From NCBI GenBank assembly GCA_009746045.1, contig RPFO01000644.1, positions 1,031,680 through 1,095,679 on the forward strand: 64,000 nucleotides of DNA, given 5' to 3'. Source of the stretch: Mesostigma viride (Eukaryota; Streptophyta; Mesostigmatophyceae; Mesostigmatales; Mesostigmataceae). Position 1 is the first letter of the stretch. Each line of letters begins with the position of its first letter. The position numbers were made by a program, and so were the translations under genes. The notes beneath the pieces are model-generated. The model searched no databases, was not told the origin of the DNA, and saw only the letters and a list, made by a program, of their open reading frames with translations. Positions 1-53,517 of the stretch are shown here, one piece after another.

Positions 1-324
1 GGACTCTCACGTAGCGTGTAGTCTCTTCGAGTCTCTCGTTAGTGGCCTTCGTGTTTCTCCCTTTCCTTGGGAGCAAGGCCGGTAGCATGTCATGGAGCGC
101 TGCCTAACTGCGGGCTCGTGAGCATGGAGTGCATCGATATTGAGACTATCAACGTGTTGTAATTGTATTAACTTTCTCAATAAATTCCGCATGTGCGGCT
201 TCATCATCAGACTGTGCAAAGTGTGTGTTGTGAAAGCATTATTCTATAGCAGGGGAGGCAATAAGGTGGTCATCAGGCACGAGGGACAGTTCCTTGTCCT
301 CGGCTGAGAGCCCTCCTTTCGTTA
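1..324 (+). mobile_element. gypsy-1 5' LTR, 3' portion only
   Basis: The window opens inside this LTR. It matches 11,208-11,531 (constant offset 11,207) with one mismatch that I noticed, at 268 (a versus t). An AATAAA signal lies at 179-184. The two copies diverge right after 324, so this is taken as the LTR end. Near-identity of the LTRs means the element inserted recently, in contrast to its broken reading frames. Confidence 0.85.
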
Positions 325-619
325 CTCGAAGAGACTACCCGGTAGTCTGCTTCCTTCTGTTCGAAGCCAAGACGTTGGCTTTAGTGTTTATCAACCATCA
401 GCAGTACAGGGAACGGCCTGGCTGACAGTTTGTAAAGGAAGTGTCTTGAGACAGATTTTAAGAAAATAGAACTAGCCAGAATTTGCTGGCTCTTGTCTTT
501 TTCTGGCAGGCTAGTCGAGTCGTTATCCTTGACGCCTGTTATAAAGCCTTTGGTTGTTGCTTCTTCTCAGCGAAACCTAGGCTTGTTGGTTCTTGTTTTG
601 CCCATCGGTCAGCTGGTGC
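325..619 (+). other. gypsy-1 untranslated leader
   Basis: About 300 bases lie between the LTR end and the first plausible Gag start. I see no gene and could not identify a convincing primer-binding site; the sequence after the LTR does not start with TGG. Confidence 0.5.
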
Positions 620-2291
620 ATGCCACTGACGCGAGCGCAGACTCGAGCCATGGCGGATGCAAATAGAGCAGATGCCGACACGTCCGCTCCGGGGTCGAAT
701 GGCGGGATTCCTCCCGCCGTACCCGCAGTGGGTGAGAGTCGCGACCAAGAAGCGCCGCTGAGTATGGTGGCGCTGTTCGCGCAGATGCAAGCGCAGATGC
801 AGCAACAGTCGCAACAGTTGCAGCAGCAACTGGCGCTGCAGATGCGGGAAGTGACCGACAGATTGGTGGCCGTAGAGGGTCGTCATCTGCAGTCCACACC
901 ATGGGACGGGCAGGCATCGATGCCGGGCCCAATGGTGTTGCCGCGGAGCCGAGGGAGCGGGACCAGCCGCCAACCTCAGGTAATGCGGCGGGAAGGGCTC
1001 CGATGGAACCGGGGGTTTTGGCTGGGTCGCTAACCCAACACGACTTGCTTGGTGAGGCGGATGGTCAGCCACGGGGCGAGTATACGCTGGCGCCCAGGCG
1101 CCTGCCTTTCGATCAAGCGCGAGACGGATTGCACGAGGAGAACGGGGCAGGGCTGGCGCGCGCGATGGACCCACGCAGGGGTGCACCAGGACGCATGCTG
1201 CCAGGCGGGGTCTCAATTCCGTTTGGGCGAGGCGGTGGGGCGCTGACCGGCGGGTCGACTGCACGGTGGTCAAGTGTGCCAATCGGGCGCATTCCGCCCA
1301 TGGAGGACATAACCACGCCGCTGGCTTTCCGAGTACGGGAGGCAGCACGCCCAAGCACGCTGGCGCAGGGACGCGCAGCTCAGCGACCGCCGGAGGATGC
1401 CGATGGGGTGCAGTACCCGCAAAGGGTGCGCCTCATACCTGAAGGCGCGAAGATGCCCACCCTACCACGGGTGGACATGCGCGAGAAGTTCTCCACAACC
1501 GGCAATCTGGCCACGCTGGCGCAGGCCTACAACGCGTACAAGTCATGGATTGATCTGCAATACATGACTACGCAAGGCGCTGTAATGCATGAGTTTGTGA
1601 TGAACAACATGCATTTCTTCTTTCACGGCCTTACGCTGAGGCGAGTGGCTAGGCTGGTGGAGCAGTGGAGAGAGGTCTCGCTGTACACGCGTCACACGGA
1701 CGTGTGGTTCGGCTTCGACGGGCGTGGCCAGCCCGACTATGACAACATCATGTATGGTGTCGACCCTGCCGAGGAACTGTGGGGCCTCCTTCGCCAGGAA
1801 TACCCGGTGGAGACCATCAAGGCAGAGCGTGAGTGGCGCAGTTTCAAGATAGCCGAGGGTGAAACCCCGGAGCAATCTTACGAGCGCCTCATGGAGTTCG
1901 CCGGCGAAGTGGAGGACTGGTCCGAAAAGCTGGCGTGTCAGAAATGGCTGCAAGCGCTAGGCTCCAAGGAGATGGAGCTGCCCACGCCGCCCAACGGCCA
2001 GCCGTGGCGATTGCGGTCACTGTGCATTGAGGTCAGGGCCATGATGCGACGACACGCGCAAGGCCGGATCTCGGTAAGCACGGTGGTGGCCGAGCTGCAG
2101 GCCAAGGTCGACGCGCTGACCAAGGCCAAGTCGGGTGAGTCGTCTGCCACAAGACAAGCGCGCCCGCAAGGCGGCCACGGTGCTAGCAGGAACCAAGGGG
2201 GGTCTCGCAACGCCTCATCGCATGATGCAACCCAGGGTAACGCCGCTGGCGGCAACAAGGACGCTGCCGCTCCGCCGACGCGAGCTGGGGG
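620..2291 (+). CDS. gag: gypsy-1 Gag (frameshifted)
   Basis: Structural capsid polyprotein of a Ty3/gypsy element. The N-terminus is in frame 2, with ATG at 620 or a better-context ATG at 650 (GCCATGG). It carries a Gln-rich run around 784-845 that looks like a coiled coil. Reading moves to frame 1 between about 900 and 1,020 and stays open to the G7 run at 2,287-2,293. The segment at about 1,480-2,080 has the Trp-rich helical look of retrotransposon capsid (for example VEQWREVSLY and EWRSFKIAEGETPEQSYERL). A basic, Gly/Ala-rich tail follows. The zinc knuckle continues in frame 3 downstream. The frame changes could be decay, sequencing deletions, or, at the G7 run, programmed -1 frameshifting. 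Confidence 0.75.
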
Positions 2292-3851
2292 GGCACGTCC
2301 TCACAGACGGGTAGGACGGATGCGCGCAAATCGGGCTGCTTCCTGTGCGGTCAGGATGGGCACATCAAACGTGATTGTCCCAAGGCGTGTAAGAAGTCAC
2401 ACCCGGCAACGGTCCGCACCCATCTGGCGGGGCAGTGCCCAGCGCCGGGGGTGCACTTTGCGGACGTGGAGGACAAGAAGGTGGACGCGGGGGTGGTCAT
2501 CATTCAGCCGACGGGCGAGGCGGGGGGACGTGAAAGGGAGGATGGGGGATCGCAGGTTCAATACAGGGACGAGGACTTCTGGCGGCCAGCCGACGTGATG
2601 GCGTTGGACATCCACGCAGTTGGCGCGCGAGGGAAGCAAGCACGTGCACCGCCGTCGTTTCAGGTGGGGCAGCCAAGTGAGACTGTGGGGCAGCTGCCTC
2701 AGTCCTTTCGCATGGCTCCCGCTCGGACCGGCTCCACCCTGGAACACGACAATCCTGCTGGGGCAGAGCAGCGGCGCAGGTTGTTGCCATTATACCCTAT
2801 GCCGTCGGTCGTGGACACGCCTGCATACACTCCCCGGCAAGTGGTCGAGTGGTTCGGTCAGCGGGCCGTGGAGGTGCTCGGGTCGCATGCGTCAGAGGTA
2901 CAGCGGTACGCTGACACAATGGACGCCCGTAGGTTGCACAACGCTGAGACAGCCACATTTGTCGGGCATCGCCCTGCATCGGCTTCGGTAATCGTGGGTC
3001 ATGTCGCTCATGGTGTCTTGGACAACGCGCAGCGGGCGTGCGTAGTGCCTAGGGCACCCACTGTCACCTCATATCCGGATGGCGAGCCAGCAATGGCGTT
3101 TCAGGCGCAGGGGCACGGGGAGCCCCTGAGCAACGTGGTCTACAGTACTGACCATGAATTGGTCGTGAAACTGGACAGCGGGGCCCAGCCACTCGTTATC
3201 AGTGCTCGGCTGGCCCAGTTGCTCAACCTAACCAGGGAGAATGGCGGGCTGCGGGACAGTCATGTGTCCGTGGCGGGCTGGCAGGGCCCTGCCGCTAAAC
3301 CCTTTGCCATGACTGCGGTCCAGGTAATGGTCATCCTCAACCCGCTCAGGCCATCCGACATGGCCTGCATCCCTGTGAATGCCCTTGTGACCGAGCAGTC
3401 ATCGTATGACGTGCTGGTCGGCATGGAGGTCATGTTTCCCATGCGGCTCGAGGTACGCATGTGGGAAGGCCGCGCGGTGTACATCGTTGACAGAGACGGT
3501 GACGCCATGCGCCAAGCAAGCATCCCGGTGAGCTGCTACAGCTCGGACACTGGGGCAGTGCGTGTCTCGACGGTCAACCGGGTCGAGGCTGGCTCGCACG
3601 ACGCGGTGGTGGAGGTACGGATGGGGGAGGTCACGGCAGCTGGGGGGGCTGTGCGTGATAAGCATCGGCCGTGCATCCCAACAGCGCTGGTGGGACGGGC
3701 CTCATTGCAGAGCACGTGGGCGGCGCGACAGCAGCCGCAAGCGCGGCAGGCCCTTTTGCGTCAGCACGTCACCAACGCGGTGCGGCAGCAACAACTCTCT
3801 CATCTCCCGCGGCAATCGCAGTCCAAGTGGCTGTCGCGACAACGAAGGTAA
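2292..3851 (+). CDS. gypsy-1 zinc knuckle and aspartic protease
   Basis: This frame 3 segment is open from the G7 run. It begins with a CX2CX4HX4C knuckle at 2,337-2,378 (CFLCGQDGHIKRDC), the nucleic-acid-binding end of Gag. A retropepsin follows: the catalytic triplet is DSG at 3,174-3,182 (VKLDSGAQPLVIS), with the late-domain signature DVLVGMEVM near 3,409-3,435. Retropepsins work as homodimers and cut the Gag-Pol polyprotein. The Ser in place of the commoner Thr (DSG versus DTG) is tolerated in the family. The frame closes with TAA at 3,849-3,851. From about 3,662 frame 2 also looks protein-like, so the shift toward the methyltransferase frame may occur before the stop. Confidence 0.8.
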   Translation, partial: GTSSQTGRTDARKSGCFLCGQDGHIKRDCPKACKKSHPATVRTHLAGQCPAPGVHFADVEDKKVDAGVVIIQPTGEAGGREREDGGSQVQYRDEDFWRPADVMALDIHAVGARGKQARAPPSFQVGQPSETVGQLPQSFRMAPARTGSTLEHDNPAGAEQRRRLLPLYPMPSVVDTPAYTPRQVVEWFGQRAVEVLGSHASEVQRYADTMDARRLHNAETATFVGHRPASASVIVGHVAHGVLDNAQRACVVPRAPTVTSYPDGEPAMAFQAQGHGEPLSNVVYSTDHELVVKLDSGAQPLVISARLAQLLNLTRENGGLRDSHVSVAGWQGPAAKPFAMTAVQVMVILNPLRPSDMACIPVNALVTEQSSYDVLVGMEVMFPMRLEVRMWEGRAVYIVDRDGDAMRQASIPVSCYSSDTGAVRVSTVNRVEAGSHDAVVEVRMGEVTAAGGAVRDKHRPCIPTALVGRASLQSTWAARQQPQARQALLRQHVTNAVRQQQLSHLPRQSQSKWLSRQRR

Positions 3852-3861
3852 CTTCTGTGCC

Positions 3862-5307
3862 GATGTTGTGGCAGAGTCGCGGGTCTTGTCCGAAGGGGTT
3901 GTATTGCTAGAATTGTTTGCTGGGATGGGAGGGGGGCTGGCTGGCTTTCTCGCTGCAGGCGGTACGTGCCACACGTTGATCGCCGTAGAGCCGTCTCCTA
4001 CCGCTCGGGCAGTGTATAGGCATCACTGTGCCCAGCTGTCTGCCCTGTATCCATCTCAGTTCCCTCCGTCTGCGTGGACAGATCCGTTTGGGGAGTGCCC
4101 TCAGGATATCCGTGCTATTGGGGAGGTTCATGTGCGAGGCCTTTTGAGGCGGCACAAGAGGATAGACCTCGTCCTCGCGGGCTGGGAATGTCAAGGGTTG
4201 AGTCAGGCCGGCGTAGGACGCGGGCTTGCGGATCCTAGGAGCGGGTTGTTTTGGGATCTGCTTCGAGTCGTTGGACTCTTGCAGCAGCTGCAGGACCAGC
4301 CACTAGCGTATCTTTTTGAGAACGTGGTGGCCGACGACAGCCCTCACGAGGTAGTGAGGAAGGACTGGGCCCAGATCGTGGACATCTTAGGGGCACCAGT
4401 CACGTGCGACAATGCAGGATTGGGCGGGCTCACCCACAGGTACCGCGCATTCTGGACCAACCTTGCACTCACCACCACCATCCAGGCAGTGGTAGATGCG
4501 ATCACACGACAGCACGACGGCATGCCCGCGGAGGTGGCGCTGCCACCACATTTGGTCACGCAGCGGGTAGACGTCGCCGATCGGCACCCTTACGCGCCCG
4601 TCAATCACGTAGGTAAGCCTATGTGCGCTCTTCCCACCTTGGTTAGTTACCAGGGGTCATCGGCCTACAGGGACCGGGGCAAGGGTTTGGTATGGGACAC
4701 CGGTACGGGTTTGTTGGTGCAGCCGCCCGCTGAGTTTCGGGAGGTGAGCATGGGGTTCCATGTGGGGGCGTCCGCCGCTGAGGGGGTTTTAGAGGCCACT
4801 AGGTGGTCTCTCGTTGGGCAAGCCATGTCAGCCTTCCAGGTTGGGTATGTTCTGCGGGCCGCAATGCAAGTGCGCCAGGGTGGGGGAGATATCCCCACAC
4901 CGCCACCGCCTGTCAGTGCCCACGCGGCTGGTGTCCGGCCAACAGCGTCCGGCGGCACTGGGTCGCCATGGAGATCGCGGCTGCTTCAACTATGGAGCGT
5001 TATCCTCATGACGTCCTTGTTGTCCAGCACGGTGTTCGCTGGAGCGCCCACCCTGCAGCAATCGGTCGGTCGCGCAGTCCGTGCCATTCAGCAGGTGAGC
5101 GTCACACCCGGTGTAGCCGCATTTTCCCTTTTCCACGATGCCGCTGTCCGGGGGCCTTGTGTCGACAGTAGGAGTGCCGCAGTCGCAGATCCTGCTGCCT
5201 CTCACATATGGGCCATAGGTGAGCACCTCACCGCCACGCAACGCAAGGCTATGGAGCACTGGTTGCATTCTGCACGCTCAGTTTCGCTTTCAGCAGTGAA
5301 GAACTAG
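3862..5307 (+). CDS. Cytosine-5 DNA methyltransferase domain inside gypsy-1 pol
   Basis: A C5-DNMT catalytic domain lies in frame 1, between protease and RT. Motifs appear in canonical order: I, LELFAGMGGGLAGF from 3,904 (SAM binding); II, IAVEPSPTARAVY; IV, GWECQGLSQAG with the catalytic Cys codon at 4,189-4,191; VI, LFENV at 4,312-4,326; VIII, HRYRAFW from about 4,435; a short target-recognition region at about 4,450-4,720; IX-like EFREVSMGF; X, VGQAMSAFQVGYVL at about 4,810-4,855. Motif IV has Glu-Cys where Pro-Cys is usual. The domain has no internal stop or frameshift, although gag and RT around it do. Known family role: SAM-dependent methyl transfer to cytosine C5. Inferred role: methylation of element or host DNA. 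No ATG start is evident, so it is probably released from the polyprotein. The tail from about 4,870 to 5,270 is an unrecognised linker. Confidence 0.93.
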   Translation, partial: DVVAESRVLSEGVVLLELFAGMGGGLAGFLAAGGTCHTLIAVEPSPTARAVYRHHCAQLSALYPSQFPPSAWTDPFGECPQDIRAIGEVHVRGLLRRHKRIDLVLAGWECQGLSQAGVGRGLADPRSGLFWDLLRVVGLLQQLQDQPLAYLFENVVADDSPHEVVRKDWAQIVDILGAPVTCDNAGLGGLTHRYRAFWTNLALTTTIQAVVDAITRQHDGMPAEVALPPHLVTQRVDVADRHPYAPVNHVGKPMCALPTLVSYQGSSAYRDRGKGLVWDTGTGLLVQPPAEFREVSMGFHVGASAAEGVLEATRWSLVGQAMSAFQVGYVLRAAMQVRQGGGDIPTPPPPVSAHAAGVRPTASGGTGSPWRSRLLQLWSVILMTSLLSSTVFAGAPTLQQSVGRAVRAIQQVSVTPGVAAFSLFHDAAVRGPCVDSRSAAVADPAASHIWAIGEHLTATQRKAMEHWLHSARSVSLSAVKN

Positions 5308-6702
5308 GGTGCTACAACGGGGGCTGCATGGGGGTCCCACTAGATACGGATCAGCCCTTATTCAGGCGGCAGCATAGGCTGAGCTTGGCTGAGCTGGAAT
5401 TCGTAGATGCTAACTGTCGAGAGCTAGAGGCAGCTGGGATCATCCGCGCTTCATCCTCCAGTTATGCAGCTGCCACGGTGGTTGCACCCAAGAAGGATAC
5501 CATCACAGGCGAGTGGACAGGTATGCGCATGGCCACTGACCTGCGTCAGCTGAACGCGCACACTCCTGTTGATATAGGTACCCCATGCCTCGGGTCGATG
5601 ATGTTTTGGATAAAATATCTCCCCAGGTCAAGTATGTGTCGTCGCTAGATTTGCGTAGCGGCTTCCATCAGATCAAGGTCGTAGAGGCAGATCAGCGCAT
5701 GCTGGCCTTTTGGGGTGGGACCCGTCTGTACGAGTGGGTTCGCATGCCATTCGGACATCGCAACGCTAGTGCGGTGTTCCAACGTGCCATGGACCAGGTG
5801 CTGGCAGGTTTGCCATTTGCAGCCTGCTACATAGACGATGTCATTGTCTTTAGCGAGACATTTGACCAGCACTTAGCTCACCTCGATCAGGTTCGGATCG
5901 CCCTAGATAAGGCCAACCTGCGGCTGCACCCTGAAAAGTGCAAGTTCGCCCAACAGACCATAGGGTTTCTTGGTCATCAGATTGTACCAGGTGGCCGGAC
6001 CCCTGAGGCAGCCAAAGTGGAAGCCATCAGCAACGCCGCAGTGCCCATCGACATCTCGGGGGTGCGCGCATATCTCGGGCTAGCTGGCTATTATCGAGGA
6101 TATATTCAGAATTTCAGCACCAAAGTCAAACCCCTGACTGAGTTGTTGAAGAAGGGCAATGTCTGGGCGTGGGGTCCGGCTCAGCAGCGAGCCATCGATA
6201 CCATCAAACAGGAACTGACTGCCGCTCCTATCCTCCGCGCCCCCGACTATGCTCTGCCCTTCATTCTTTACACCGATTGGTCCAAGGTAGGCCTAGGGGC
6301 TGTGCTAGCACAAAAGGACGATGCGGGGCGCGAGCATGTTATCGCGTACGCTAGTTGGAGTAACAACTCTGCCGAGAGTCGGTACTCTTCCTACGAGGGG
6401 GAAGCGTTAGCCGTTGTGTGGGCCATCAAGCACTTCAGACCATATCTCTTTGGGCGGGTGTTCACACTTGTCACTGATCACCAGCCCTTATTGTGGTTGA
6501 TGACCAGCGACAAACTCACGGGTAAGCTGGCCCGGTGGGCAATGATCATTCAGGAGTACCACCTGACAATCGTCCATCGGCCAGGTGTGGATCACTCCAA
6601 CGCGGACGTCCTGTCCAGGTATGCTCTACCAACCACTGTTGACAACACTGGTGCGCGGGCCCTAGGGGCCGAGAGCTCGCCTGGGTCTGTGGTTTTTGTT
6701 AA
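5280..6702 (+). CDS. gypsy-1 reverse transcriptase and RNase H
   Basis: Ty3/gypsy RT starts in frame 3 (EELGCYNGG... TDQPLFRRQHRLS) and continues in frame 2 from about 5,580, where PMPRVDDVLDKI corresponds to the family's YPLPRIDD block; this is a -1 change beside an ACCCC run. The catalytic box YIDD is at 5,828-5,839, followed by FLGHQI and the thumb motif YLGLAGYYRGYI. RNase H follows with YTDWSKVGLGAVL, the EGEALAVVWAIKHF helix and TDHQPL, ending at the tether HRPGVDHSNADVLSR. It copies element RNA into cDNA and degrades the template. The frame is cut at 6,699-6,702 by the TTAA of an inserted DNA element and resumes at 8,422. Confidence 0.93.
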
Positions 6703-8419
6703 CACGTCCCCTGTAGAAACTCAGTCCTAAAAATAGGACTGAGTATACCATCTTTGAGATCATGTGGCGGTAAGGGTAGGGGGTACCCCATATATTTGAT
6801 ATGCATCATAGCACTCAATATCATGCTAATGCTTGGGCATGTGCTTAAAAAATCATATGTTGACCAAATCATGTAAAATTATACGTGACTCTCAACCCTT
6901 ACTCGCGATTTTGGAATTTTCTGTGGAAGCACGAGTGTGTAAAATCCAATAAAATCCATATTCACTATTAAAAATCATAGGCGTGTAGATATTAGAGTTC
7001 TTGAACTGTGGAAAAAAACTGGACTCAATTCGGCCACTGGCACTGCCTGAAACATGCAAAACACTGCCAGTCCTATAAATAGGACTGGGCCTTGGTAACA
7101 AAATGCTAGCATGGGAGTGCGGTCGTACTACACACCACCGTGGCCACCAACCATGCCAATCAACTCATTTCCCTTCCAGCATAATAGGACAACATGCTTG
7201 CATCATCATATTGCAGTTATATTATACCTTATAATGTGTGAGAGCCTATGCAAGCACGTAGGGAATGGGTTTGGATACCTACCCACGAAAGGTTTTTTTT
7301 TGTGTGTTAACCACCAATGTATTGGGCAGGTTAAGCATATTTCAAGTGTCTCTAACAAGAATGGACATGGATGAAACTGTTTTGCCTTGCCATGGCATGG
7401 CCAACATACTTGCTGGCACATGATGACAGTGGTTTACCACCAAGATCTTTCACTCACCCATATAAGCTTGAAAGCACCCTTGACGAGGCCCATGGCCACA
7501 CAATTATGCAGTATGAACGTAGCAAAAGAACAACTAACATCTATGAAGGTGTTTAAACCCATAAAGCGCCTAAAAACCTGCACAACTACACCAGGGCAAG
7601 GCAAATGCCTGGCAACATCATCTAAAAAGGGGGTTTTGGAGAGGGGCAGGCAACGGTCAAGAAAGAGCATCAAGACTCGAAACTGGCAACACCTCGCAAG
7701 CTTAAACTCATGTAAGAACATCAAGAAATGATGAGACAACGATATTCCGGCTTTACCTTGCATGGCTGGCGTTACCTTGGCCCAGGCGGTGCCCGCAAAA
7801 GTGGAACTTTGAGGCACACACACCATGAAGTGACAGAGTGGTCGAAATCATCAAATCTATACTGCCACTAGGTCAATTCTATGACCATGCATGATAACAA
7901 GTAGAAAGAAGCCTATAAACCCTTTGACTTGCGCCGGAAAGCAGTTGTAGTAATCAATTCCGTCGGCCTGCCTGATCGCAGCTTTTTCCAGCAAGAACGG
8001 TGCCGACACCTAGTAAATCGCATTTCCGCGAGCTGAAAATTGACTTGTATCATCTCTATGATATATAAAAACTATTTCCTGAGTTTGGCCAGCTATATCG
8101 TCGGAAAACGTAAACTGCATGCATGGGCGCAAGCCGCCATGGCTAGGTCGTGCATTTCCGGAACACACGTTTCACGTGGAAAAGTACCCTTACCACCTGT
8201 TCTTTGACCGTACATTTAGCCGCTCATACCAAATCCAAAAAAATCGCAAAAATATGTCCAAGAAAGATCTTTTCACGTAGTATTTGAATAAATTTTGAGG
8301 GAATTTTTTGACAAACCTTCCGATCGGGGCAAATTTTCTACGAAACCCCAAATCTCAGTCCTAAATTTAGGACTGAGTTGAACTCAGTCCTAAAAATAGG
8401 TGTGGCTACAGACGACGTG
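6703..8419. mobile_element. TTAA-flanked DNA transposon, copy 1 (piggyBac- or Kolobok-like)
   Basis: A 1,717-bp AT-rich insertion flanked by TTAA at 6,699-6,702 and 8,420-8,423. The ends are short inverted repeats (CACGTC ... GACGTG). Removing it with one TTAA restores the gypsy-1 reading frame (GTT AAT GCT). Just inside each end are palindromes of the form ACTCAGTCCTA-N-TAGGACTGAGT (6,718-6,743; two near 8,353-8,400), with a related one at 7,069-7,090. TTAA duplication is typical of piggyBac and Kolobok. No transposase is recognised, so it is probably non-autonomous. A copy in the opposite orientation is at 51,409-53,128, and a third partial copy near 63,353. Confidence 0.85.
7434..7826 (-). 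CDS. Conserved ORF of unknown function in TTAA element copy 1
   Basis: A 130-codon open frame whose translation aligns along about 120 residues with the ORF at 51,975-52,391 in copy 2, ending at nearly the same position. Shared blocks include FAGTAWAK, MFLHEF, LDRCLPLSK and GLNTFID. No motif or family is recognised. It is Cys/Phe-rich, with no obvious signal peptide or DDE motif. Many amino acids differ between copies, yet both stay open. It could be an exon of a lost transposase, captured sequence, or chance survival of an open frame. Confidence 0.3.
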   Translation of the reverse strand: MVCVPQSSTFAGTAWAKVTPAMQGKAGISLSHHFLMFLHEFKLARCCQFRVLMLFLDRCLPLSKTPFLDDVARHLPCPGVVVQVFRRFMGLNTFIDVSCSFATFILHNCVAMGLVKGAFKLIWVSERSWW

Positions 8420-8421
8420 TT

Positions 8422-8750
8422 AATGCTGCAGGCTTCGCTGACGCCGACGCCGAGGCAGACTGGCGCGCAGTCGAGTATACAGTCGCAGACTTTGCAGCAA
8501 GCTGCAATGCAGTTCACCCTTCTCCCTTCACCCCTGCCGCTGGCCTCCTCGCGTTGGAGGAAGGTAATTCTCCGTCCTTTGACATTGACAATACCTTGGC
8601 ACGATACCTAGCACTCCAGGTGGTGTTGGTTGGCCATCTCACAGTGGAATGCAACATGGGTGATGTGTGGCTCGATGGGCGTGTGTTGGAGCAGGTCCAA
8701 GGGATAGCTCTCACCCCACCCCGGTTGATTGGTCCTCAGCCCAGCGTGAC
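8422..8750 (+). CDS. gypsy-1 pol linker between RNase H and integrase
   Basis: Continuation of the RNase H-side frame after the TTAA insertion, in frame 1. It is acidic and Ala-rich (AGFADADAEADWRAVEYTV) with no recognised domain. A -1 change within the C-rich stretch around 8,714-8,722 leads into the integrase frame 3, whose upstream text (TPVDWSSAQRDAELNRV) looks like the normal continuation. The segment marks the pre-integrase spacer of gypsy pol. Confidence 0.65.
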
Positions 8751-10196
8751 GCTGAGTTGAATAGGGTGCAACATAGGGCGGTCACATACTCGTGGGATGC
8801 CGGGGTCCTCCACAAAATGATCGGCAAGCGCAAAGTGGTGGTGCCGCCGCCTCACAAGCGGGTCGCCATCGTCCAGCAAGCCCATGAGCGGTATGGCCAC
8901 CTGGGTGGTAACCGCACTTTGGCGCTAGTGCGCGCCTCTTATTGGTGGAACGGCATGCGTGCCACAGTCGCGCAGGTCGTCGCTCGCTGCACGCAGTGTG
9001 CCCGGGTGAAGGCCCGGTTCAATGTGGACCACGATGCGAAAGAATTGATGAGCCTACCCATCAGAGGGCTCTTCTACCGCTGGCACGTAGACCTGTGTGG
9101 GCCCTTTGATGAAAGTGCAGATGGCCACAAGTATGTCATGGTGTGTGTCGAAAGTTTTAGCAAGTGGGTCGAGCTCATCCCCATTGCTGACAAGCAGGCC
9201 GCCACCACCGCCAAGCACTTCGCCGACATCATCGCCAGGTTTGGCGCCCCCGCGGAGGTGGTCACCGACCAGGGCGGGGAGTTTCGTGGGGAATTTCAGG
9301 AATTGTTGGATGCATGTCTCATTGATCACCGTCGCACTTCTCGCAAGCATCCTCAGGCCAATGGTTTGGCTGAGAGATTGGTGCAGACTGTCAAGCAGGC
9401 TTTGCGCAAGTGGAGCCTGCAGTCAGCATCATTCACTATGTGGGATCGTGAACTGGCGTGGATAGCCATGGGTTACCGAATGTCACCCCAGGAGTCGCTC
9501 GCCTGTTTCTCCCCGTATTTCCTGTTGTTTGGGCGCGCACCCTTGCTCCCCACGGAGGCGCAGAGTGCACACCCCACCCCTATGGCGTTTGACAACGCCA
9601 GTCAGTTTCTGGCTGAGGTGACCGCACGGGCGGCTACTTTCCGCAAGGTTATGCCCATTGCCATGAACAACTTGTTCATCGCCCAGCACCGAGATACCCT
9701 GCGCTACGCTCAGCGCCGGGGGGGCGCTTACATGGCCCGTCAGCTGCATTTTCGTCCGGGGCAGTTCGTATTTCTCCGCACGCAGCTGACCGACACTCTT
9801 GACGTGACTGCGGGGCCGACCATCTTGCGGATCGTCGCCATCAAGCCATCTGGGGTCGCCATTTTGGAGGGCGTCGACGGCAGTCGCACCACCGATAACG
9901 TAAGCAACCTCAGTCCGTGTTCGTTGCCCAACTTATTGCCTGACCTCGCCCCGCACACGGCCAGGCGGGTCAAGGACGCACAGTGTCAGGTTTGCCATCG
10001 CGTAGACCAGGGGGATACCATGTTGCTGTGTGATCACTGTAATTGTGGGTGGCACATGCACTGCTTGCAGCCAGCGCTCACCACCGTGCCAGCGGGCCAG
10101 TGGTTTTGCCCAGTTTGTGTCGCTGCCCGTTTCGCAACCAGTAGCGTCACCATTTCCTTAGCTGCTGTGGTGTTGGCACGGTCGCTGGCCATGTGA
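8718..10196 (+). CDS. gypsy-1 integrase with C-terminal PHD finger
   Basis: The integrase has the HHCC zinc-binding region (HERYGHLGGNRT ... CTQC, about 8,883-9,000), then the DDE core: Asp at 9,090 (WHVDLCGPF), Asp at 9,267 (VTDQGGEF) and Glu at 9,372 (NGLAERLVQ). The last two are 35 codons apart, as expected for D,D(35)E. A C-terminal strand region with FRPGQFVFL follows. At about 9,987-10,122 is a C4HC3 PHD finger (CQVC ... CDHC ... GWHMHC ... FCPVC). PHD fingers typically read histone H3 tails, so this tail could target integration to chromatin, in the way chromodomains do in chromoviruses (inference). The protein ends in a short hydrophobic tail before TGA at 10,194-10,196. Confidence 0.95.
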   Translation, partial: TPVDWSSAQRDAELNRVQHRAVTYSWDAGVLHKMIGKRKVVVPPPHKRVAIVQQAHERYGHLGGNRTLALVRASYWWNGMRATVAQVVARCTQCARVKARFNVDHDAKELMSLPIRGLFYRWHVDLCGPFDESADGHKYVMVCVESFSKWVELIPIADKQAATTAKHFADIIARFGAPAEVVTDQGGEFRGEFQELLDACLIDHRRTSRKHPQANGLAERLVQTVKQALRKWSLQSASFTMWDRELAWIAMGYRMSPQESLACFSPYFLLFGRAPLLPTEAQSAHPTPMAFDNASQFLAEVTARAATFRKVMPIAMNNLFIAQHRDTLRYAQRRGGAYMARQLHFRPGQFVFLRTQLTDTLDVTAGPTILRIVAIKPSGVAILEGVDGSRTTDNVSNLSPCSLPNLLPDLAPHTARRVKDAQCQVCHRVDQGDTMLLCDHCNCGWHMHCLQPALTTVPAGQWFCPVCVAARFATSSVTISLAAVVLARSLAM

Positions 10197-10222
10197 GGAG
10201 CCATGAGAGCCAGCGAGGGGGG

Positions 10223-10363
10223 AATCATGGGACAGGTCCTCGCCCACCCCACCGGGCATGCAGTTAAGGCAGGCACGTCAGCTCAGCTCATTTGGGTTTT
10301 ACCAAAGCTGAGCATGGCCAACCGCCATGGTGGCGCCGGAGATTGTGGTACGCAGACGCGACA
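10223..10363 (+). repeat. 141-bp direct repeat, left copy
   Basis: It matches 11,531-11,671 (offset 1,308) with no difference that I noticed. It lies between the integrase stop and the 3' LTR. The two copies bracket that LTR and are far too long to be a target-site duplication. Confidence 0.85.
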
Positions 10364-10468
10364 GCTGTCACGGACGCGAGCTGTGTCATCCGGGCGCCCA
10401 CTATGCACAAGACCGGTGACGTGCGCAAGGAATTTGTTTTCTGCGCATTTTCGACAAAGGCTAGTGAC

Positions 10469-10478
10469 CGGGGGGGGA
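10469..10478 (+). promoter_or_regulatory. gypsy-1 polypurine tract
   Basis: An uninterrupted G8A run follows CTAGTGACC, directly upstream of the inferred 3' LTR start. Such tracts prime plus-strand cDNA synthesis. Confidence 0.6.
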
Positions 10479-11531
10479 CACTAGCATTTACAGCATAAGA
10501 GCGGACGAAAGTGCACGTGCGCGCGCGCCGGGCCATGCAGGCACGGCTGGGCGCGCAGCACAGACGTACTTGAGCGGACGGCAGCACAAGTGCGCAGCGT
10601 CGAGAGGATCATACGCGAGTTAGTGGACAGCTGGAGCTGGAGCTGGAGCTGGAGCTGGAGCTGGACTGCTGGACTTCAACAGCGCCGAGGCTATTGACAG
10701 GCCAGGTGTCTTTGTGGTGTAGAATATAGCGGGTCAACGTTATGAGGACTGGACAGAAAATGGAAAAGGACAATTTGCGGTGCGGAGCCAGATCGCTGGA
10801 ATGAATGCGAAATCGCTGGCAGCCCTAAAAAGGGATTTCTTCTAGAAAGGAAAGATTAGAAGCAATGTTTGCTGGGCCACTCACACACAAGGTGTGAGCG
10901 TGCAGATTGTTTGAAGGATATTATGCTTCGACCTTGGTGGTCGTGTCTAAATGCCGGACATTCCCAGGGACAGAAATGCCGGAGCCTCTAGGAGATGAGA
11001 TCGGCAACAGGGTAGCAATTTAGATTTGTCGGGATGCCTTCCTGTTTTTGTTGGCATGTGTGGTAGTAAGCCAGGACGGCAACTGGAATGCGGTTTCTGT
11101 TTGCATGGTTCAGGCAGCAAGATAGTTTTGGCATTCCTGGCTGGACTGACAAGTGTGGCGTGTGTCATGCGTGTGGCATGACGAATGGTTTGGTTCATAG
11201 TCGAAGAGGACTCTCACGTAGCGTGTAGTCTCTTCGAGTCTCTCGTTAGTGGCCTTCGTGTTTCTCCCTTTCCTTGGGAGCAAGGCCGGTAGCATGTCAT
11301 GGAGCGCTGCCTAACTGCGGGCTCGTGAGCATGGAGTGCATCGATATTGAGACTATCAACGTGTTGTAATTGTATTAACTTTCTCAATAAATTCCGCATG
11401 TGCGGCTTCATCATCAGACTGTGCAAAGTGTGTGTTGTGAAAGCATTATTCTATAGCAGGGGAGGCATTAAGGTGGTCATCAGGCACGAGGGACAGTTCC
11501 TTGTCCTCGGCTGAGAGCCCTCCTTTCGTTA
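10479..11531 (+). mobile_element. gypsy-1 3' LTR
   Basis: About 1,053 bp. The last 324 bp equal the start of the window (11,208-11,531 versus 1-324). The left edge is placed just after the polypurine tract and cannot be checked, because the 5' LTR is cut by the window. AATAAA lies at 11,386-11,391. A (GGAGCT)n microsatellite sits inside. No clear TG...CA ends are seen. Confidence 0.75.
10630..10666 (+). repeat. (GGAGCT)n microsatellite
   Basis: About six tandem copies of a GGAGCT hexamer inside the gypsy-1 3' LTR. Confidence 0.9.
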
Positions 11532-11671
11532 ATCATGGGACAGGTCCTCGCCCACCCCACCGGGCATGCAGTTAAGGCAGGCACGTCAGCTCAGCTCATT
11601 TGGGTTTTACCAAAGCTGAGCATGGCCAACCGCCATGGTGGCGCCGGAGATTGTGGTACGCAGACGCGACA
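11531..11671 (+). repeat. 141-bp direct repeat, right copy
   Basis: A duplicate of 10,223-10,363, placed directly after the 3' LTR. It joins a copia RNase H fragment at 11,672 in the middle of that reading frame. Confidence 0.85.
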
Positions 11672-14119: not shown

Positions 14120-15535
14120 CACCTGCCGGTCATGCCCCGCCGCCGCCCTGGCCCGCTCTACCGCGCTAGGACCCCAAGGTCTTGGCCGCCCGGCACCGCC
14201 TCAAGCGTAACCAGGACCCGCTGCAGAAACCGGTGCTCAAGGCCGCCCTTGTGGAGGCCTACGAGCACGCTCAAGACGCAGAGGCGGCCCAGCCGCATCG
14301 CAGATGCCAACTTAGGCCTAGCTGCAAAGCTCGCAACCAGGGCAAGGACATGTAGTACCACCTCGACCGGCTCGGCGGCCGGCGGCAGCGCACCCCGGTG
14401 GAGCACACGTCCGGGGGACGGCGCCGGTCTGACAGCCTTGACCGCTGGTTGGCCCACAATGTTTCCTTGACATGCAGGTGGGGCTCGCGCCCCCCCCGGC
14501 CCGCCGCTTCACCCCGAGACGGCCGCCCGTCTCGGTGTTGCAGGCCCCCCCCGCCGCCGGCGCCCCCCTCCTCGGCCGCGGACTACCAAGTCCCCGCCGG
14601 CTTGCAGGAGGGCTGCCTTGCCACTGACCAACGACGTCGTCCACCCCTTCACTTTGAAGGAATTGGACTGCGCCCTTGCTCGCCTGGAGGAGGTGCGTCG
14701 CCTTTGCCCTGATGGTCTGCCGCTGGTCTCCATTTTTGTCGACTATATCAAGAAGGCCTTTGACACGGTCCTCTGGGAGGCTCTTTGGGCCATCCTAGCT
14801 CTGGATCGGGTACCACCAGTGTTTATTGCATGCTGCCATTCGTCGACTGTATGAGGGCTCACAGGCAGTAGTGCGGACTGCGGAAGGCACCACCCGACCA
14901 TTCCCCCTTCACCACGGGGTGTGGCAAGGTTGTGTCCTGTCCCCATACCTGTTCATTATTGTCGTGGATCATGTCATGTGCCGGGCACGTGCGCGCTTTA
15001 CTGCCCGGCTGGGGTTCGAGCCCGGCTTGGACATCCTTAATGAGCGCGAGCACGGCGGGGTTGGCACTGGCTACCGCCTGGCCGACCTGATTTATGCGGA
15101 CGACACCACCCTCATTGCGCGCCCCGAGCACATTCCGACCTAGCTAGCTGGACTGCATGTCTGGGCTTGAAGCGGGCGAGGGCGGTGGGGTTGGAGATTA
15201 GTGTCAAAACTGAGGCGATGGTGATTGGGGCCTCCAGTCGCCCTCCGCTGCCGCGCCTGCTCGACGGGACGGAGGTCCCGCTCTGTTGTGACCGCTTCAA
15301 ACTGTTGGGGAGTATGCTCCCTGACACCGCCGACGATGTGGACATCCGCATCGGCCTGGCCTGGAACGTACAGGCTCCGTTCGCTCAACACCTACTGGCA
15401 CTCGAAGGGCCTGGGCGACAGGGCGAGCACCGCAAGCGCATGCTCTTCAAGGTCCTCGTCCTCACGGTGCTCACGTATGGCGCCGAGGCGTGGACACTCA
15501 CGGACACACTGGCAGCTACACACTGCGGGTGACCC
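14120..15535 (+). pseudogene. LINE reverse transcriptase remnant
   Basis: A non-LTR retrotransposon RT spread over at least three frames. Its blocks in order: a pre-RT basic helix region (VLAARHRLKRNQDPL, about 14,180-14,240); FTLKELDCALARLEEV (14,650 on); IFVDYIKKAFDTVLW (14,733 on), the catalytic Asp block; RRLYEGSQAVVRT; HGVWQGCVLSPYLF (14,918 on); the catalytic box YADDT near 15,097; and the thumb FKLLGSMLPDTADDVDIR and LTYGAEAWTL (15,298-15,500). The palm between CPDGLP and IFVDY is too short, implying an internal deletion. Stops near 15,141 and elsewhere make it non-functional. Part of it is duplicated at 17,655-17,825. Confidence 0.88.
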
Positions 15536-17574: not shown

Positions 17575-17654
17575 GCACCACTACCACTACTAGATACCAG
17601 TATATATAGTGATACTGCCTACTAGCTCAGCTACAACAGTTAGCAGATAATATA

Positions 17655-17825
17655 CAACGGGGTGTGGCAAGGTTGTGTCCTGTCTCCATACCTGTTCATT
17701 ATTGTCGTGGACCACGTGACTCATGCGCCAGGCACGTGCGCGCTTTACTGCTCTGAAGGGGTTCGAGCCAGGCTTGGACATCCTTAACGAGAGTGGGCAC
17801 GGCGGGGTTAGCACGGGTTACGCAT
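17655..17825 (+). pseudogene. LINE RT fragment, duplicate of 14,918-15,080
   Basis: It repeats the GVWQGCVLSPYLF region through FEPGLDILNE with scattered differences. There is no flanking RT on either side. It sits within the inverted-repeat element. Confidence 0.85.
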
Positions 17826-18343: not shown

Positions 18344-20595
18344 ATGCCCCCTAAGAAGCGAGGTGGTGGTAATGCACAGCCCCCGAAGGGCCGTAGAGAG
18401 ACACAGTCCCCGGGGGACAATAGCAGGGATCGAAGAACAGGAAATAGCTAGCACGTCTCGTCGGAGTTTCAGTGGGTCCCGGAGATCCGAGGCAGCCGCC
18501 AGGCCGGCCAGGGTTACCGCACAACGGCAGACGACTCTTTCAAGAGTCGCAGCTGAGAACAAGCTGCCCTAGGGTTTGATCAGCAACAGCAGTCGCCGCA
18601 GCGACAGCATCAGCCTCAGCAGTCGCCGCAGATACAGCATCAGTCTCAGCAGTCGCCGCAGATACAGCATCAGTCGCAGCAGTCGCAGCAGCAGCATGCA
18701 GCAGCAGTCGCAGCAGCAGCGACAGCCACAGCAGCAATCGCGGCCGCGCCCGACCGAGCATCTGGGCGAATGGGACAGGGTACCTCCCACGCAGCGACCA
18801 CCATCCGTGGCAGTTGTGCCGGAGGAAGATGAAGATATAGAGGTCGCAGATAGCCCGGTAGCTAGCTCGCCGTTCGCTCCGCCGCCTGAGTTCGTGCAGC
18901 CCTCTCAATTGGGGGCATACGCGCGTGGCCGCGCCCGAGCCTGACTCACCCTTGGGCAGGGCGTGGCCGCGGCGGGCCGGGGCCGGGCCCTGGAAGGGAT
19001 CCCCGTCGGGTCTCCTTTGGAGCACACGAGAGCTGGTCCAGATCCCCACCGCAGACGTCAGGGTCGGCCCACGTGCAGTACGATCCCGAGGAGGAGGACT
19101 ATGCTCCCCCGGGCCCCTTCTCCATCCCAGCAAGGAGCGCGCCCACCATGCAACGCTAACTTCAGCCGGCTGCCGGCCCCCGAATGACCCCGGTTATGAG
19201 CATCCCACGTCCGTACGTTCGAGTTCGATCGGCCTGAGTCGGCCCCCTTTGCGGCGCAGCGGGTATCCGATGACTACGCGCTCCACCGAGAATCGGGCGA
19301 CTTCGATCCTGAGCGTGAGGAGGACACCTTCGTGTCCCAACGTGGGCATGACCAGCATGCAGGAAGGGGTTCGCACCAGGAGATGCGGGCGCGGCGTCAC
19401 CAGCCCCTCACCTTTTCCAGCCCCGCGTACTGCAGAAAGGGCGCCCCCCTGCGACCTGACCCTGTCAAGGCCCCGCCTATGCCAGATTTTAAGGCGGTGC
19501 CCAAGCTCCATGCGGGCATGACTCCCTGTGAGATCGACGAGTGGGCTCGTATATATGTGGCAACAGTTGTACACTGTATGGTGTGAACACCATGAGTGGC
19601 AGCTGGCCACCAAGGTTCTGATCCCCTACGTGGTGGTGAAGTGTATGGACCCATCAGTGGTCGGGATGCTTAACGTCGAGAGTGTGGCGTCTCAGTCATA
19701 CCCGCAGACGGTGGAGGAACTGCTGGCGCGCATCCGGCGCAAGCTCATCCCTCCCGGCTATCGACTGACCGAGCGGTTTGAGTTCGGACGCCTACGTCAG
19801 GGCAACACTGACTTGGCGGAGTTCCTCACCACCTTTGACTCCTTTGCGGCTCGGCTGACAGGGGACCTGACGTGGACCGAGTACAAGATTCGGTTTCTGG
19901 AGGCTATTCACCCTGACCTCCTGGACGAGGTTACGAAACACTACGCGGAGGTCCCTTGGGAACGCCTCGACATCCATGTCGTCCAGCAGTACCTCCTCCA
20001 GGTGGCCGATGTCATCAAGCGCCCGCGCTCAGCCAGCACGAGGCGGTTCGTACCGCCCCCGGCGCCACGCTGCGTCCACTTCACGGAGGTGGAACCCGTC
20101 CCTTCGGAAGGGGAGGAGTCTAATAACGACGAGCAGCCGGCCATCCAACTGCACGCCATCGACGAATCCAAGGCCCGCTGTTTCATGTGCCACGAGGTCG
20201 GACACCTCAAGAAGGACTGTCCGCGTCTCAAGGCGCGCACCAGCACGGCGACGGAGGCCACCAAGGAGGCCCCCAAGTTTTCTGGTCCCGCCTTTGAGAA
20301 GCGCCCAGCGCCTGCAGCGCGGGATGCCCACCCGCGCAACGCGTGCGCGCGGGCTGCCACGCTGCGCGACGCGCGCACGCAGCCCAACCAGTTCCAGACA
20401 CCCCGCCTCCCAGCGTCGTTCTCTCGGACGGTGCGCGAGCTCAATGAGATTCTGGCGCAGCATCAGGCATCCGAGGCTGAGGGTGACGAGTATGAGGCGC
20501 TCAACCACGGTGACGACGACGACTCGGATGAGGGGGAAGGGGGGACAGGGCGGTCGGACGAGGCGGCCTCCCGGCCCCGCGATCCTCGCGCATAG
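18344..20595 (+). pseudogene. gag: gypsy-2 Gag (several frame breaks)
   Basis: A Gag polyprotein starts near ATG 18,344 (MPPKKRGGGNAQPP) and breaks into several frames. A Gln-rich region at 18,587-18,720 is built from 30-bp tandem repeats. The longest intact part is frame 1, about 19,540-20,595, with the capsid segment (LTERFEFGRLRQGNTDLAEF; LTWTEYKIRFLEAIHPD) and a CX2CX4HX4C knuckle CFMCHEVGHLKKDC at about 20,179-20,220. It ends in an acidic tail. The frame 3 segment ending at 19,586 flows into the frame 1 segment by +1. It packages element RNA. Protease follows on the same strand. Confidence 0.85.
18587..18676 (+). repeat. 30-bp tandem repeat in gypsy-2 gag
   Basis: Three imperfect units starting CAGCAGTCGCCGCAG at 18,587, 18,617 and 18,647. 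They encode a Gln/Ser-rich stretch in one frame. Confidence 0.8.
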
Positions 20596-20888
20596 TGCCC
20601 CTTCCCACAGCCGGGTAGAAGTAGGAGTAGACTTAGTCAACCAGGTAGCACAGACGCCTGCACGGGATGTGGGCGCGGCCACCCCTGAGGCCGATGTAGC
20701 GTCAGTCAATAATGTAGATAGGATGGGCGGGCAGGCCCCAGAGGTCTCCCCGCCCTCTTCAGATGCAGGCGTGTCGGCGACCGAGGTCGACCCCACTTCA
20801 GCCAATCATGTCGATAGGTCGGGCGGACAGGCCCCGGAGGCCTCCCCGCCCTATGCCTCACCAAGCACCAGAACACTTCTAATCTTCA

Positions 20889-21257
20889 GTGGTGGACTGG
20901 CGCTCCCTACCATGCACCACACTTGACCCGTTTCTGAAGGAGAAGACGATCCTGGATGTTAAGTTTATGGTGGATACGGGGGCGACCACATCTTTTATCC
21001 ATGAGGCCCTGGTGCGACGCGCGGGCTACACGATTCGACCACACCCGACGCCCATCACCGTCCGGTATGCCGATGGTAACAAGCACCCGTCCCCTGGCCT
21101 CGTGGACCTCAAGGCGGTTGTCCAGGGCATCCCGGTGGAGGTAACAGCCACCGTGGCGCCGCTGAGCGCAGCCGACATCATCCTGGGCATGGATTGGCAG
21201 GACGCCCAGCTAGGACGTGACGATCAGTGTCAAGCGCCGGGTGGTTTGGTTCCCTGA
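20889..21257 (+). CDS. gypsy-2 aspartic protease
   Basis: A retropepsin in frame 3. The catalytic motif is FMVDTGATTSFIHEALV (about 20,965-21,012) and the late motif ADIILGMDWQ (about 21,172-21,200), spaced as in gypsy proteases. It matures Gag-Pol. The real sequence continues in frame 1 (DVTISVKRR) after a +1 change near 21,210, so the annotated tail of this frame is probably not translated. Confidence 0.88.
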   Translation: MVDWRSLPCTTLDPFLKEKTILDVKFMVDTGATTSFIHEALVRRAGYTIRPHPTPITVRYADGNKHPSPGLVDLKAVVQGIPVEVTATVAPLSAADIILGMDWQDAQLGRDDQCQAPGGLVP

Positions 21258-22478: not shown

Positions 22479-22827
22479 AGTTAATGCCACCGACCGGCTG
22501 AGCTATGGCGGTCGGTCACGTTGAGCTTGGGATAAGGTGAACACAGAGAACTGCTGTCGGAGCTGGCCAACCACTGGTTTATGTCCTAGCCAGCAAAGCC
22601 TATCCGGTTAGCCGTAACCGTGGGACAAGCTAGCTGTCCGTACCGACCCGGATAAGGCCCCGGACTGGGGCCTATAGGTGGCGCCGGCCCTAGGCGCCGC
22701 CCTTAGACCGGTCGACCGCATCGGACCGCCGGATTATAGCCGGCGGCTTAGCGGACGCTAGCGGAAGGCGTGCGGACGGACATGGGGAACTTAGAGCCAG
22801 ATCCTAGGGCTCTAGAGTTACTCAACT
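22479..22827 (+). repeat. Repeat L, copy a (349 bp, AGTT...AACT)
   Basis: It starts AGTTAATGCC and ends CTCAACT. The same sequence in reverse complement is split between 31,425-31,558 and 39,910-40,122. It is preceded by GTGTC (22,474-22,478), whose reverse complement GACAC precedes copy b at 31,420-31,424. This looks like the two halves of one 5-bp target duplication now separated. It could be a solo LTR or a TRIM-like unit; no coding content. Confidence 0.85.
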
Positions 22828-31424: not shown

Positions 31425-31558
31425 AGTTGAGTAACTCTAGAGCCCTAGGATCTGGCTCTAAGTTCCCCATGTCCGTCCGCACGCCTTCCGCTAGCGTCCG
31501 CTAAGCCGCCGGCTATAATCCGGCGGTCCGATGCGGTCGACCGGTATAAGGGCGGCGC
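31425..31558 (-). repeat. Repeat L, copy b, first part
   Basis: Reverse complement of the end of copy a (starts AGTTGAGTAACTC). It is interrupted at 31,558 by the LARD-like element. The last five bases, GGCGC (31,554-31,558), are the element's target duplication. Confidence 0.88.
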
Positions 31559-53128: not shown

Positions 53129-53517
53129 TTAAGCGTTATTTTAATAACCAAGATCAATTTCCTCCGATCACCTTGGTTCAGTGCAAATGCAACATGGTAT
53201 CGAGTTAATGGCTTACTTTTGAGTAAGAAATCTGGGTTTTTTCCTAGGTTCTTCACTCTTTGGTCAAGGAAGCTTGTGTGGGGACGCCCAAATATTTTTT
53301 ACAAGCTTGGACTGCGCCGTTTCTTCGCCTTTCTGAAGAGTGCCACTTTCTCTGGGAGAGTGGTGTGATTTCTGGTCTGAGAAGGACACCTCCCTTCTTG
53401 TTACTGTTTTATTGGAAGGAGTAAGACCTCAAGGCCAGAGGCATCCAAGGAGGTGTTCCCTGAGTTGGTTTCTAATTGAAACGTTTTTGATTTGCTTTAC
53501 TGGAAGCTTCTGGGTGC

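What the first reader, a model, noticed from the sequence alone, without database searches (positions are those of the whole stretch)
3862..5307. Gypsy retrotransposon that carries its own DNA cytosine methyltransferase
Seen: a full set of C5-DNMT motifs (I, II, IV, VI, VIII, IX-like, X) in one open frame between protease and RT of a gypsy element with near-identical LTRs. Known: de Mendoza and colleagues (2018, Nature Communications) reported DNMTs captured by retrotransposons in charophytes (gypsy type) and dinoflagellates (copia type), and showed that such enzymes can methylate CG de novo. Inferred: this copy belongs to, or parallels, the charophyte case; the element may methylate its own cDNA or the target locus. 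The DNMT is the least damaged part of the element, consistent with selection on it.
Basis: partly seen in the sequence, partly recalled or inferred. Interest (0 to 1): 0.93.

Follow-up and report, generated by a model that had tools for sequence, protein, structure and literature searches.

The report
Gypsy element carrying a DNA methyltransferase
A jumping gene, probably from a green alga, carries its own enzyme for marking DNA with methyl groups; this partnership was already known from a related alga and from dinoflagellates, and the copy seen here has many relatives in other algae and environmental DNA, with an unusual active-site motif and a chromatin-reading finger.

Summary

New here, as far as my searches show: (1) a PHD finger on the integrase; (2) Glu in place of the motif IV proline, in the window and 103 of 132 relatives; (3) a perfect 15-nt self-primer/PBS complement, as in Tf1; (4) repeats that read A-coding-B-A-B, like a 2-LTR circle opened inside one LTR (left edge outside the window).

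The copy is young (LTR parts 322/323 identical) but broken. Activity and function are inferred; dN/dS could not be run.

The parts
1..323 (+). 3' part of the 5' LTR (R-U5; the rest lies left of the window)
   Evidence: 322 of 323 bases equal to 11208-11530
18..32 (+). predicted self-primer (5' end of the element RNA)
   Evidence: perfect 15-nt complement of 324-338; the only complement of 11 nt or more between 1-323 and 324-900
324..338 (+). primer binding site, directly after the LTR
736..2598 (+). gag ORF (620 aa)
   Evidence: open frame; no Pfam match; 43.7% identical over 135 aa to Mesostigma P0004
2241..3851 (+). CCHC zinc knuckle (2337-2378) and aspartic protease (KLDSGA 3168-3185)
   Evidence: PF00098 1.3e-5; Asp_protease_2 6.6e-4, below its curated cut-off; 48.2% identical over 413 aa to P0004
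3532..5307 (+). DNMT ORF; catalytic domain about 3892-4866
5223..5648 (+). start of pol (N-terminal part of RT, other frame)
   Evidence: 44.9% identical over 98 aa to Closterium P0011
5573..6730 (+). RT and RNase H
   Evidence: PF00078 1.8e-26, PF17917 2.1e-38, PF17919 1.1e-34; Ty3 4.9e-56
6699..8423 (+). later transposon insertion in pol, TTAA at both ends, ends CACGTC/GACGTG
   Evidence: second copy at 51405-53132 on the other strand, 86.8% identical over the aligned 1715 columns
8664..10196 (+). integrase (H2C2, D-D-x34-E) with a C-terminal PHD finger (9984-10118)
   Evidence: PF17921 3.1e-17, PF00665 1.7e-12, PF00628 6.4e-9
10215..10222 (+). polypurine tract GAGGGGGG
   Evidence: read directly
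10223..11530 (+). 3' LTR, 1308 bp (= repeat B 10223-10363 + repeat A 10364-11530)
   Evidence: starts right after the PPT; ends at the base matching the LTR/PBS border
10360..10369 (.). palindrome GACAGCTGTC at the B/A border
   Evidence: one of 2 perfect 10-bp palindromes in the LTR
11531..11671 (+). second copy of repeat B joined to the LTR end (2-LTR-like junction); right end ...GCGACA
   Evidence: 141 of 141 bases equal to 10223-10363

Best explanation
This is one recent but broken copy of a Ty3/Gypsy LTR retrotransposon family of a streptophyte alga (most likely Mesostigma viride). A DNMT3-type cytosine methyltransferase is a stable domain of its polyprotein, between protease and RT; the integrase ends in a PHD finger. 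Shown: the domains, their order, their conservation in relatives, a self-primer complement, and the B-A-B repeats at the right end. Inferred: the polyprotein is cut in the particle; the RNA primes itself (Tf1 way) and is copied to cDNA; the DNMT travels in the same complex and methylates the new double-stranded cDNA and/or the insertion site, so the copy arrives already marked as self or silent; the PHD finger reads the histone H3 tail (probably with unmethylated K4) and steers insertion into quiet chromatin. In effect the element carries a writer and a reader, as animal DNMT3 enzymes do with their ADD domain. The confidence is for the whole statement; for the identity part alone I would say 0.95.
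For: DNMT: (profile best DNMT3A 4e-22, DRM2 6e-13, HhaI 6e-8). Element gene: P0002, P0004 and P0011 carry protease-DNMT; 88 of 133 relatives carry RT/RNase H before the DNMT (all 133 have the DNMT because the searches were made with it). Between window and P0004 the DNMT is the best kept of the three parts that could be compared: 70.7% against 48.2% (protease region) and 43.7% (gag). Catalytic Cys in 133 of 133 rows with letters, motif VI Glu in 133 of 134, second motif VIII Arg in 134 of 134. Self-primer: where 0 of 20000 shuffles of 1-323 held the 14-nt complement. PHD: best solved matches BAZ2B 1.1e-15, WSTF, CHD4, the fly KDM5 Lid. That such fingers bind H3 with unmethylated K4 is recalled, not from a call.
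Against: No activity data. Motif IV has Glu for Pro, so catalysis cannot be taken for granted. No CpG depletion in the element, so no mutational trace of lasting CG methylation. This copy cannot move: four changes of frame and an inserted transposon. None of the three Mesostigma gene models holds a whole DNMT (P0001 starts at motif IV, P0002 lacks the motif I stretch and the C-terminal part, P0004 ends before motif X). The host is inferred from relatives at 59-71% identity; the window's own genome could not be searched. In PMC5890265 the Klebsormidium enzyme showed no activity in yeast (inconclusive there, because human DNMT3B also failed).
Confidence: 0.5

Rival explanations
1. A host DNMT gene or retrocopy fell into this one Gypsy copy by chance and is not an element gene.
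For: Only one DNMT match in the window; the other Gypsy RT pieces (21214-22521, 30634-31436) have none.
Against: Protease-DNMT in P0002 and P0004, protease-DNMT-RT in P0011, and 88 of 133 relatives with RT/RNase H-DNMT. The frame 3532-5307 is open throughout.
Confidence: 0.02
2. The DNMT works in trans on the host: it methylates host genes, rival elements or host defence loci rather than its own cDNA.
For: The SymbioDIRS enzymes methylated CGs in yeast without preference beyond the CG, and PMC5890265 discusses effects on the host methylome.
Against: Fusion in the polyprotein with RT and integrase suggests action in the particle or at the insertion site; no data on the host methylome here.
Confidence: 0.17
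3. The enzyme is impaired (Glu instead of Pro in motif IV) and serves as a structural or DNA-binding part, a little like DNMT3L.
For: E in 104 of 133 rows with letters; no activity of the Klebsormidium Gypsy enzyme in yeast, held inconclusive (PMC5890265).
Against: The Cys, the motif VI Glu and the second motif VIII Arg are all but invariant, which is not expected if catalysis were lost. In M.HhaI the contact of this proline is through its backbone carbonyl (PMC4802922), which Glu keeps.
Confidence: 0.13
4. The DNMT is a brake: it silences new copies and so limits harm to the host and, indirectly, to the element.
For: In K. nitens, CHH and CHG methylation lies on silent elements, for instance on KnitGypsy-Dnmt3 copies, and the brake idea is raised in PMC5890265.
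Against: A brake should be easily lost within the family, yet the DNMT is the best kept of three parts between window and P0004.
Confidence: 0.15
5. On the repeats only: this is an ordinary LTR element (LTR = 10223-11530) and 11531-11671 is a scrap of a neighbouring LTR, not an A-coding-B-A-B end.
For: PPT directly before 10223 and PBS directly after 323 define an ordinary LTR; the left end lies outside the window.
Against: The extra piece starts exactly at the LTR's first base and ends at a palindrome (10360-10369; 78 perfect 10-bp palindromes in 63991 positions of the window). The ends would read TGTC...GACA. The Klebsormidium Gypsy-DNMT is said to have the repeat structure of a DIRS element, given as A-coding-B-A-B for SymbioDIRS.
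Confidence: 0.3

Closest known systems
KnitGypsy-Dnmt3 of Klebsormidium nitens (PMC5890265)
   Same: LTR Gypsy element with an unrearranged DNMT3-type domain in pol, in a streptophyte alga; repeats described as DIRS-like although the domains are Gypsy.
   Different: Different host lineage; the position of the DNMT in pol, a PHD finger, the motif IV letters and the priming are not given for K. nitens in the text I read (parts 1-4 of 7 and passages); no protein named K. nitens came up in my searches, so shared descent is untested.
SymbioDIRS-Dnmt3 of Symbiodinium (PMC5890265)
   Same: DNMT3-type domain in pol; A-coding-B-A-B repeats.
   Different: Tyrosine recombinase; here a DDE integrase (PF00665).
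SymbioLINE-Dnmt (PMC5890265)
   Same: Retrotransposon with a C5-methyltransferase.
   Different: LINE, DNMT in the upstream ORF, orphan DNMT group.
Tf1/sushi and Tcn1 self-primed Gypsy elements (PMC6317226, PMC4600332, passages)
   Same: Self-primer in the LTR complementary to a PBS just after the LTR.
   Different: Tcn1 and its kin are chromoviruses and, as I recall, carry no DNMT; here a PHD finger and a DNMT.
DNMT3A/3B catalytic domain
   Different: 22% identical over the aligned residues; Glu-Cys in place of Pro-Cys; Pfam finds no second domain in 3862-5304.

Membership tests
Ty3/Gypsy LTR retrotransposons | RT closest to Ty3 | tested here: met
   Ty3-G 4.9e-56, first of the 12 sequences at 1e-10 or better
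Ty3/Gypsy LTR retrotransposons | order protease-RT-RNase H-DDE integrase | tested here: met
Ty3/Gypsy LTR retrotransposons | two LTRs with PBS and PPT | tested here: met
   5' LTR cut by the window start
Ty3/Gypsy LTR retrotransposons | short target-site duplication | not testable with these tools
   left end outside the window; own genome not reached (19 unanswered genome-search runs)
DNMT-bearing Gypsy (KnitGypsy-Dnmt3 kind) | DNMT domain within pol, shared by several copies | tested here: met
DNMT-bearing Gypsy (KnitGypsy-Dnmt3 kind) | no introns in the DNMT | tested here: inconclusive
   open frame in the window; the relatives are predicted proteins whose introns are not visible
DNMT-bearing Gypsy (KnitGypsy-Dnmt3 kind) | A-coding-B-A-B repeats | tested here: inconclusive
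   B1=B2 and the A2-B2 junction seen; left edge not visible
DNMT-bearing Gypsy (KnitGypsy-Dnmt3 kind) | common descent with the K. nitens DNMTs | not tested
   no sequence named K. nitens was returned
DNMT-bearing Gypsy (KnitGypsy-Dnmt3 kind) | Ka/Ks well under 1 on the DNMT | not testable with these tools
   no second DNA copy reached; only protein identities
DNMT3 methyltransferases | closest to DNMT3 by profile and fold | tested here: met
DNMT3 methyltransferases | motif IV Pro-Cys | tested here: not met
   Glu-Cys at 4180-4203; the catalytic Cys itself is present
DNMT3 methyltransferases | branches inside the eukaryotic DNMT3 clade | tested here: inconclusive
   tree with only DNMT3A, one viral-contig and one bacterial enzyme as outgroup
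DRM (rearranged plant DNMT3) | rearranged motif order | tested here: not met
   motifs I to X in ordinary order; the model spans DNMT3B 566-847
DIRS/Ngaro | tyrosine recombinase | tested here: not met
   the integration enzyme found is rve/DDE
Tf1/sushi | self-primer complementary to PBS | tested here: met
Tf1/sushi | chromodomain integrase | tested here: not met
   Pfam finds a PHD finger and no chromodomain in 8664-10193 at E 0.01

The most novel reading that the evidence does not exclude
Across green algae there is one large lineage of Gypsy elements that are self-contained chromatin engineers: a PHD finger on the integrase reads the histone tail, a DNMT3 offshoot with a new Glu-Cys active-site loop writes methylation on the newborn copy, and integration uses a 2-LTR circle opened inside the LTR at a TGTC/GACA palindrome by a DDE integrase, which gives the A-coding-B-A-B ends. 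The DNMT has sat at two places in pol (protease/RT and RNase H/integrase).
Probability: 0.2. Interest if true: 0.82.

Novelty: new variant of a known kind. Interest (0 to 1): 0.6.

Why it matters
Elements that carry the very kind of enzyme used to silence them are a puzzle raised in 2018 for Klebsormidium and Symbiodinium. The relatives found here are named as Mesostigma, Closterium, Haematococcus lacustris, Chlamydomonas eustigma and Cymbomonas, besides many environmental sequences, which suggests that the trait is common and old in green algae (or spreads between them). It can then be tested by comparing DNMT-bearing and DNMT-free elements where methylation data exist (bisulfite data for Mesostigma: PMC6947507, passages). 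The Glu-Cys loop is a natural variant of what the papers read here give as the conserved PCQ/PCN triad. The PHD finger suggests a second chromatin-reading integrase besides the chromodomain type.

Tried and rejected

Literature: PMC5890265 read in parts 1-4 of 7 plus passages; passages only of PMC12344493, PMC6947507, PMC7027972, PMC6338049, PMC6317226, PMC4600332, PMC4802922, PMC6709928, PMC9998398, PMC9915684, PMC12730594. In the listings of searches and in these passages I saw no report of a DNMT-bearing Gypsy element in Mesostigma, Closterium or a named chlorophyte, nor of the PHD finger or the Glu-Cys motif (open-access library only; supplements, figures and Repbase not seen). Against novelty: PMC6338049 says in general terms that methylase-coding retrotransposons of the Ty3/Gypsy and DIRS clades occur in green algae and charophytes.

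Full report

The element. Upstream lie gag (736-2598) and a CCHC-protease ORF (2241-3851); downstream RT-RNase H (5223-6730) and integrase with a PHD finger (8664-10196). The RT is closest to Ty3 (4.9e-56). LTR pieces 1-323 and 11208-11530 differ at one base, so the insertion is young. The reading frame changes four times before the inserted transposon (gag to protease, protease to DNMT, DNMT to RT, and within RT), and a 1.7-kb transposon with TTAA at both ends (6699-8423; second copy at 51405-53132) splits RNase H from integrase. Whether some frame changes are programmed or are sequencing errors cannot be told; one predicted protein joins gag, protease, DNMT and the start of RT in Closterium (P0011), and one joins gag, protease and DNMT in Mesostigma (P0004).

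Priming and ends. Bases 324-338, directly after the LTR, are a perfect 15-nt complement of bases 18-32 inside the LTR, the only complement of 11 nt or more between 1-323 and the next 577 bases; 0 of 20000 shuffles of the LTR piece held the 14-nt version. This is the arrangement of self-primed elements such as Tf1 and Tj1 (PMC4600332, passages); among plant chromoviruses PMC6317226 reports it for the Tcn1 clade alone (passages). A polypurine tract GAGGGGGG (10215-10222) is followed by a 1308-bp LTR (10223-11530). A second G-rich tract inside the LTR (by eye near 10470) would allow a shorter LTR. Then, unexpectedly, the first 141 bases of the LTR come again (11531-11671, 141 of 141 identical), joined exactly at the LTR end, and the element stops at ...GCGACA inside what looks by eye like a copia-type ORF (Pfam gives only RVT_3 at 0.13). 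The stop falls in the palindrome GACAGCTGTC, one of two perfect 10-bp palindromes in the LTR. Read as a circle with two LTRs opened at that palindrome, the ends become TGTC...GACA and the order A-coding-B-A-B. PMC5890265 gives this order for its DNMT-bearing DIRS elements, and says in a legend that the Klebsormidium Gypsy elements have the repeat structure of DIRS. The left end lies outside the window, so this remains a reading, not a proof.

Relatives. Two searches with the window protein gave P0001, P0002 and P0004 from Mesostigma viride (59, 62 and 71% identical over the parts of the DNMT they hold; none holds all of it), P0011 from Closterium sp. NIES-54, P0012 from Haematococcus lacustris and a set of sequences without a named organism. 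A third search with an alignment gave 141 hits at 1e-5, 120 listed. Each of the three searches scored only about 8000 candidates. Of 133 relatives mapped, 71 read RT/RNase H-DNMT-integrase-PHD, and 88 have RT/RNase H before the DNMT; 4 have protease before the DNMT with no RT between (P0002, P0004, P0011, P0013), and 1 of these shows RT after it (P0011); all 133 have the DNMT because they were sought with it. Pfam adds P0012 as protease-DNMT, but its flank resembles the other kind, and its gene model may skip the RT. Named hosts of the RT-DNMT kind are H. lacustris (P0079, P0080) and Chlamydomonas eustigma (P0113, P0117, P0127); Cymbomonas (P0125) shows DNMT-integrase. So two positions in pol exist: protease/RT (window, Mesostigma, Closterium, P0013) and RNase H/integrase. 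In the DNMT tree (60 rows, a choice from the 133 plus window and 3 outgroup rows) the second kind forms a clade (94/93) that leaves out the window, Closterium and P0013-15; the window, P0004 and P0001 form one group (100/100); the retrotransposon DNMTs stand apart from DNMT3A, a viral-contig and a bacterial enzyme (99/96), but long branches meet there (P0016, both prokaryote-type rows) and such joins may be false. One clade for the first kind is not rejected (p-AU 0.434). Trees of RT and integrase were unresolved.

Selection. No second DNA copy was reached, so no dN/dS. Protein identities between window and P0004 are 70.7% for the DNMT, 48.2% for the protease region and 43.7% for gag; RT and integrase could not be compared with a Mesostigma protein. 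Against the wider set, median identity to the window is lower for the DNMT (36%, 132 proteins) than for RT (44%, 77) or integrase (46%, 92), so the DNMT is not the slowest domain over long times. Across 134 aligned DNMTs the catalytic Cys is present in 133 of 133 with letters, the motif VI Glu in 133 of 134 and the second motif VIII Arg in 134 of 134; the first motif VIII Arg in 130 and the motif VI Asn in 130 of 134. This fits long purifying selection for catalysis.

Glu-Cys. The motif IV proline, part of the PCQ/PCN signature (PMC4802922, PMC6709928, passages), is Glu in 104 of 133 rows with letters, Pro in 22, Ser in 6 and Cys in 1. On the tree the letter changes at least five times, with the outgroup set to Pro. 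In M.HhaI the proline's backbone carbonyl holds the motif VI Asn (PMC4802922), a contact that Glu can keep; what Glu adds is unknown.

PHD finger. Best solved matches are BAZ2B (1.1e-15), WSTF, CHD4, the demethylase Lid and BAZ2A; for P0006 Lid and KDM5A lead the PHD matches. Fingers of this sort are known to me as readers of H3 with unmethylated K4; that is recalled, and not all fingers in the list need share it. A chromatin-reading finger on the integrase parallels the chromodomain of chromoviruses.

Function. The likeliest course is self-primed reverse transcription in a particle that also holds the DNMT, methylation of the cDNA or of the insertion site, and PHD-guided insertion. None of this is shown. 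Against a lasting CG mark, the element's CpG ratio is 0.85 against 0.74 in the rest of the window; a young copy, another sequence context or a short-lived mark would also give this.

Verdict. A real member of a known and striking kind, with new variant features and, by these searches, a wider family than the text of the cited paper describes. Host: probably Mesostigma viride, by its relatives only.

Noticed in passing
6699-8423 and 51405-53132: Two copies of a 1.7-kb transposon with TTAA at both ends and short inverted ends CACGTC/GACGTG, piggyBac-like by its TTAA (recalled), 86.8% alike.
   Followed up: partly
19522-22521: A second Gypsy element on the + strand (gag-like 19522-20592 at 0.0056, below cut-off; RT 21214-22521, PF00078 1.5e-33) without DNMT match.
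   Followed up: partly
30634-31436 (-): Gypsy RT/RNase H remnants on the other strand.
   Followed up: no
62310-63443 (-): Copia-type RT remnant (RVT_2 1.2e-5, below cut-off).
   Followed up: no
56161-60274: About 3.3 head-to-tail copies of a 1245-bp unit, 99.5-99.9% identical.
   Followed up: no
42692-43330: Tetranucleotide array CCAT, 160 copies.
   Followed up: no
14700-15130 and 17654-17821: LINE-like RT remnants by eye; 14911-15074 and 17654-17821 are 87.5% alike.
   Followed up: no
P0041: A DNMT-PHD Gypsy polyprotein is filed under a bacterial MAG (Minisyncoccia), probably algal contamination.
   Followed up: no
P0016: A 647-aa protein on a 265-kb contig with a DNMT3-like domain after a stretch that looks DIRS-like by eye; may be a dinoflagellate element.
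   Followed up: no
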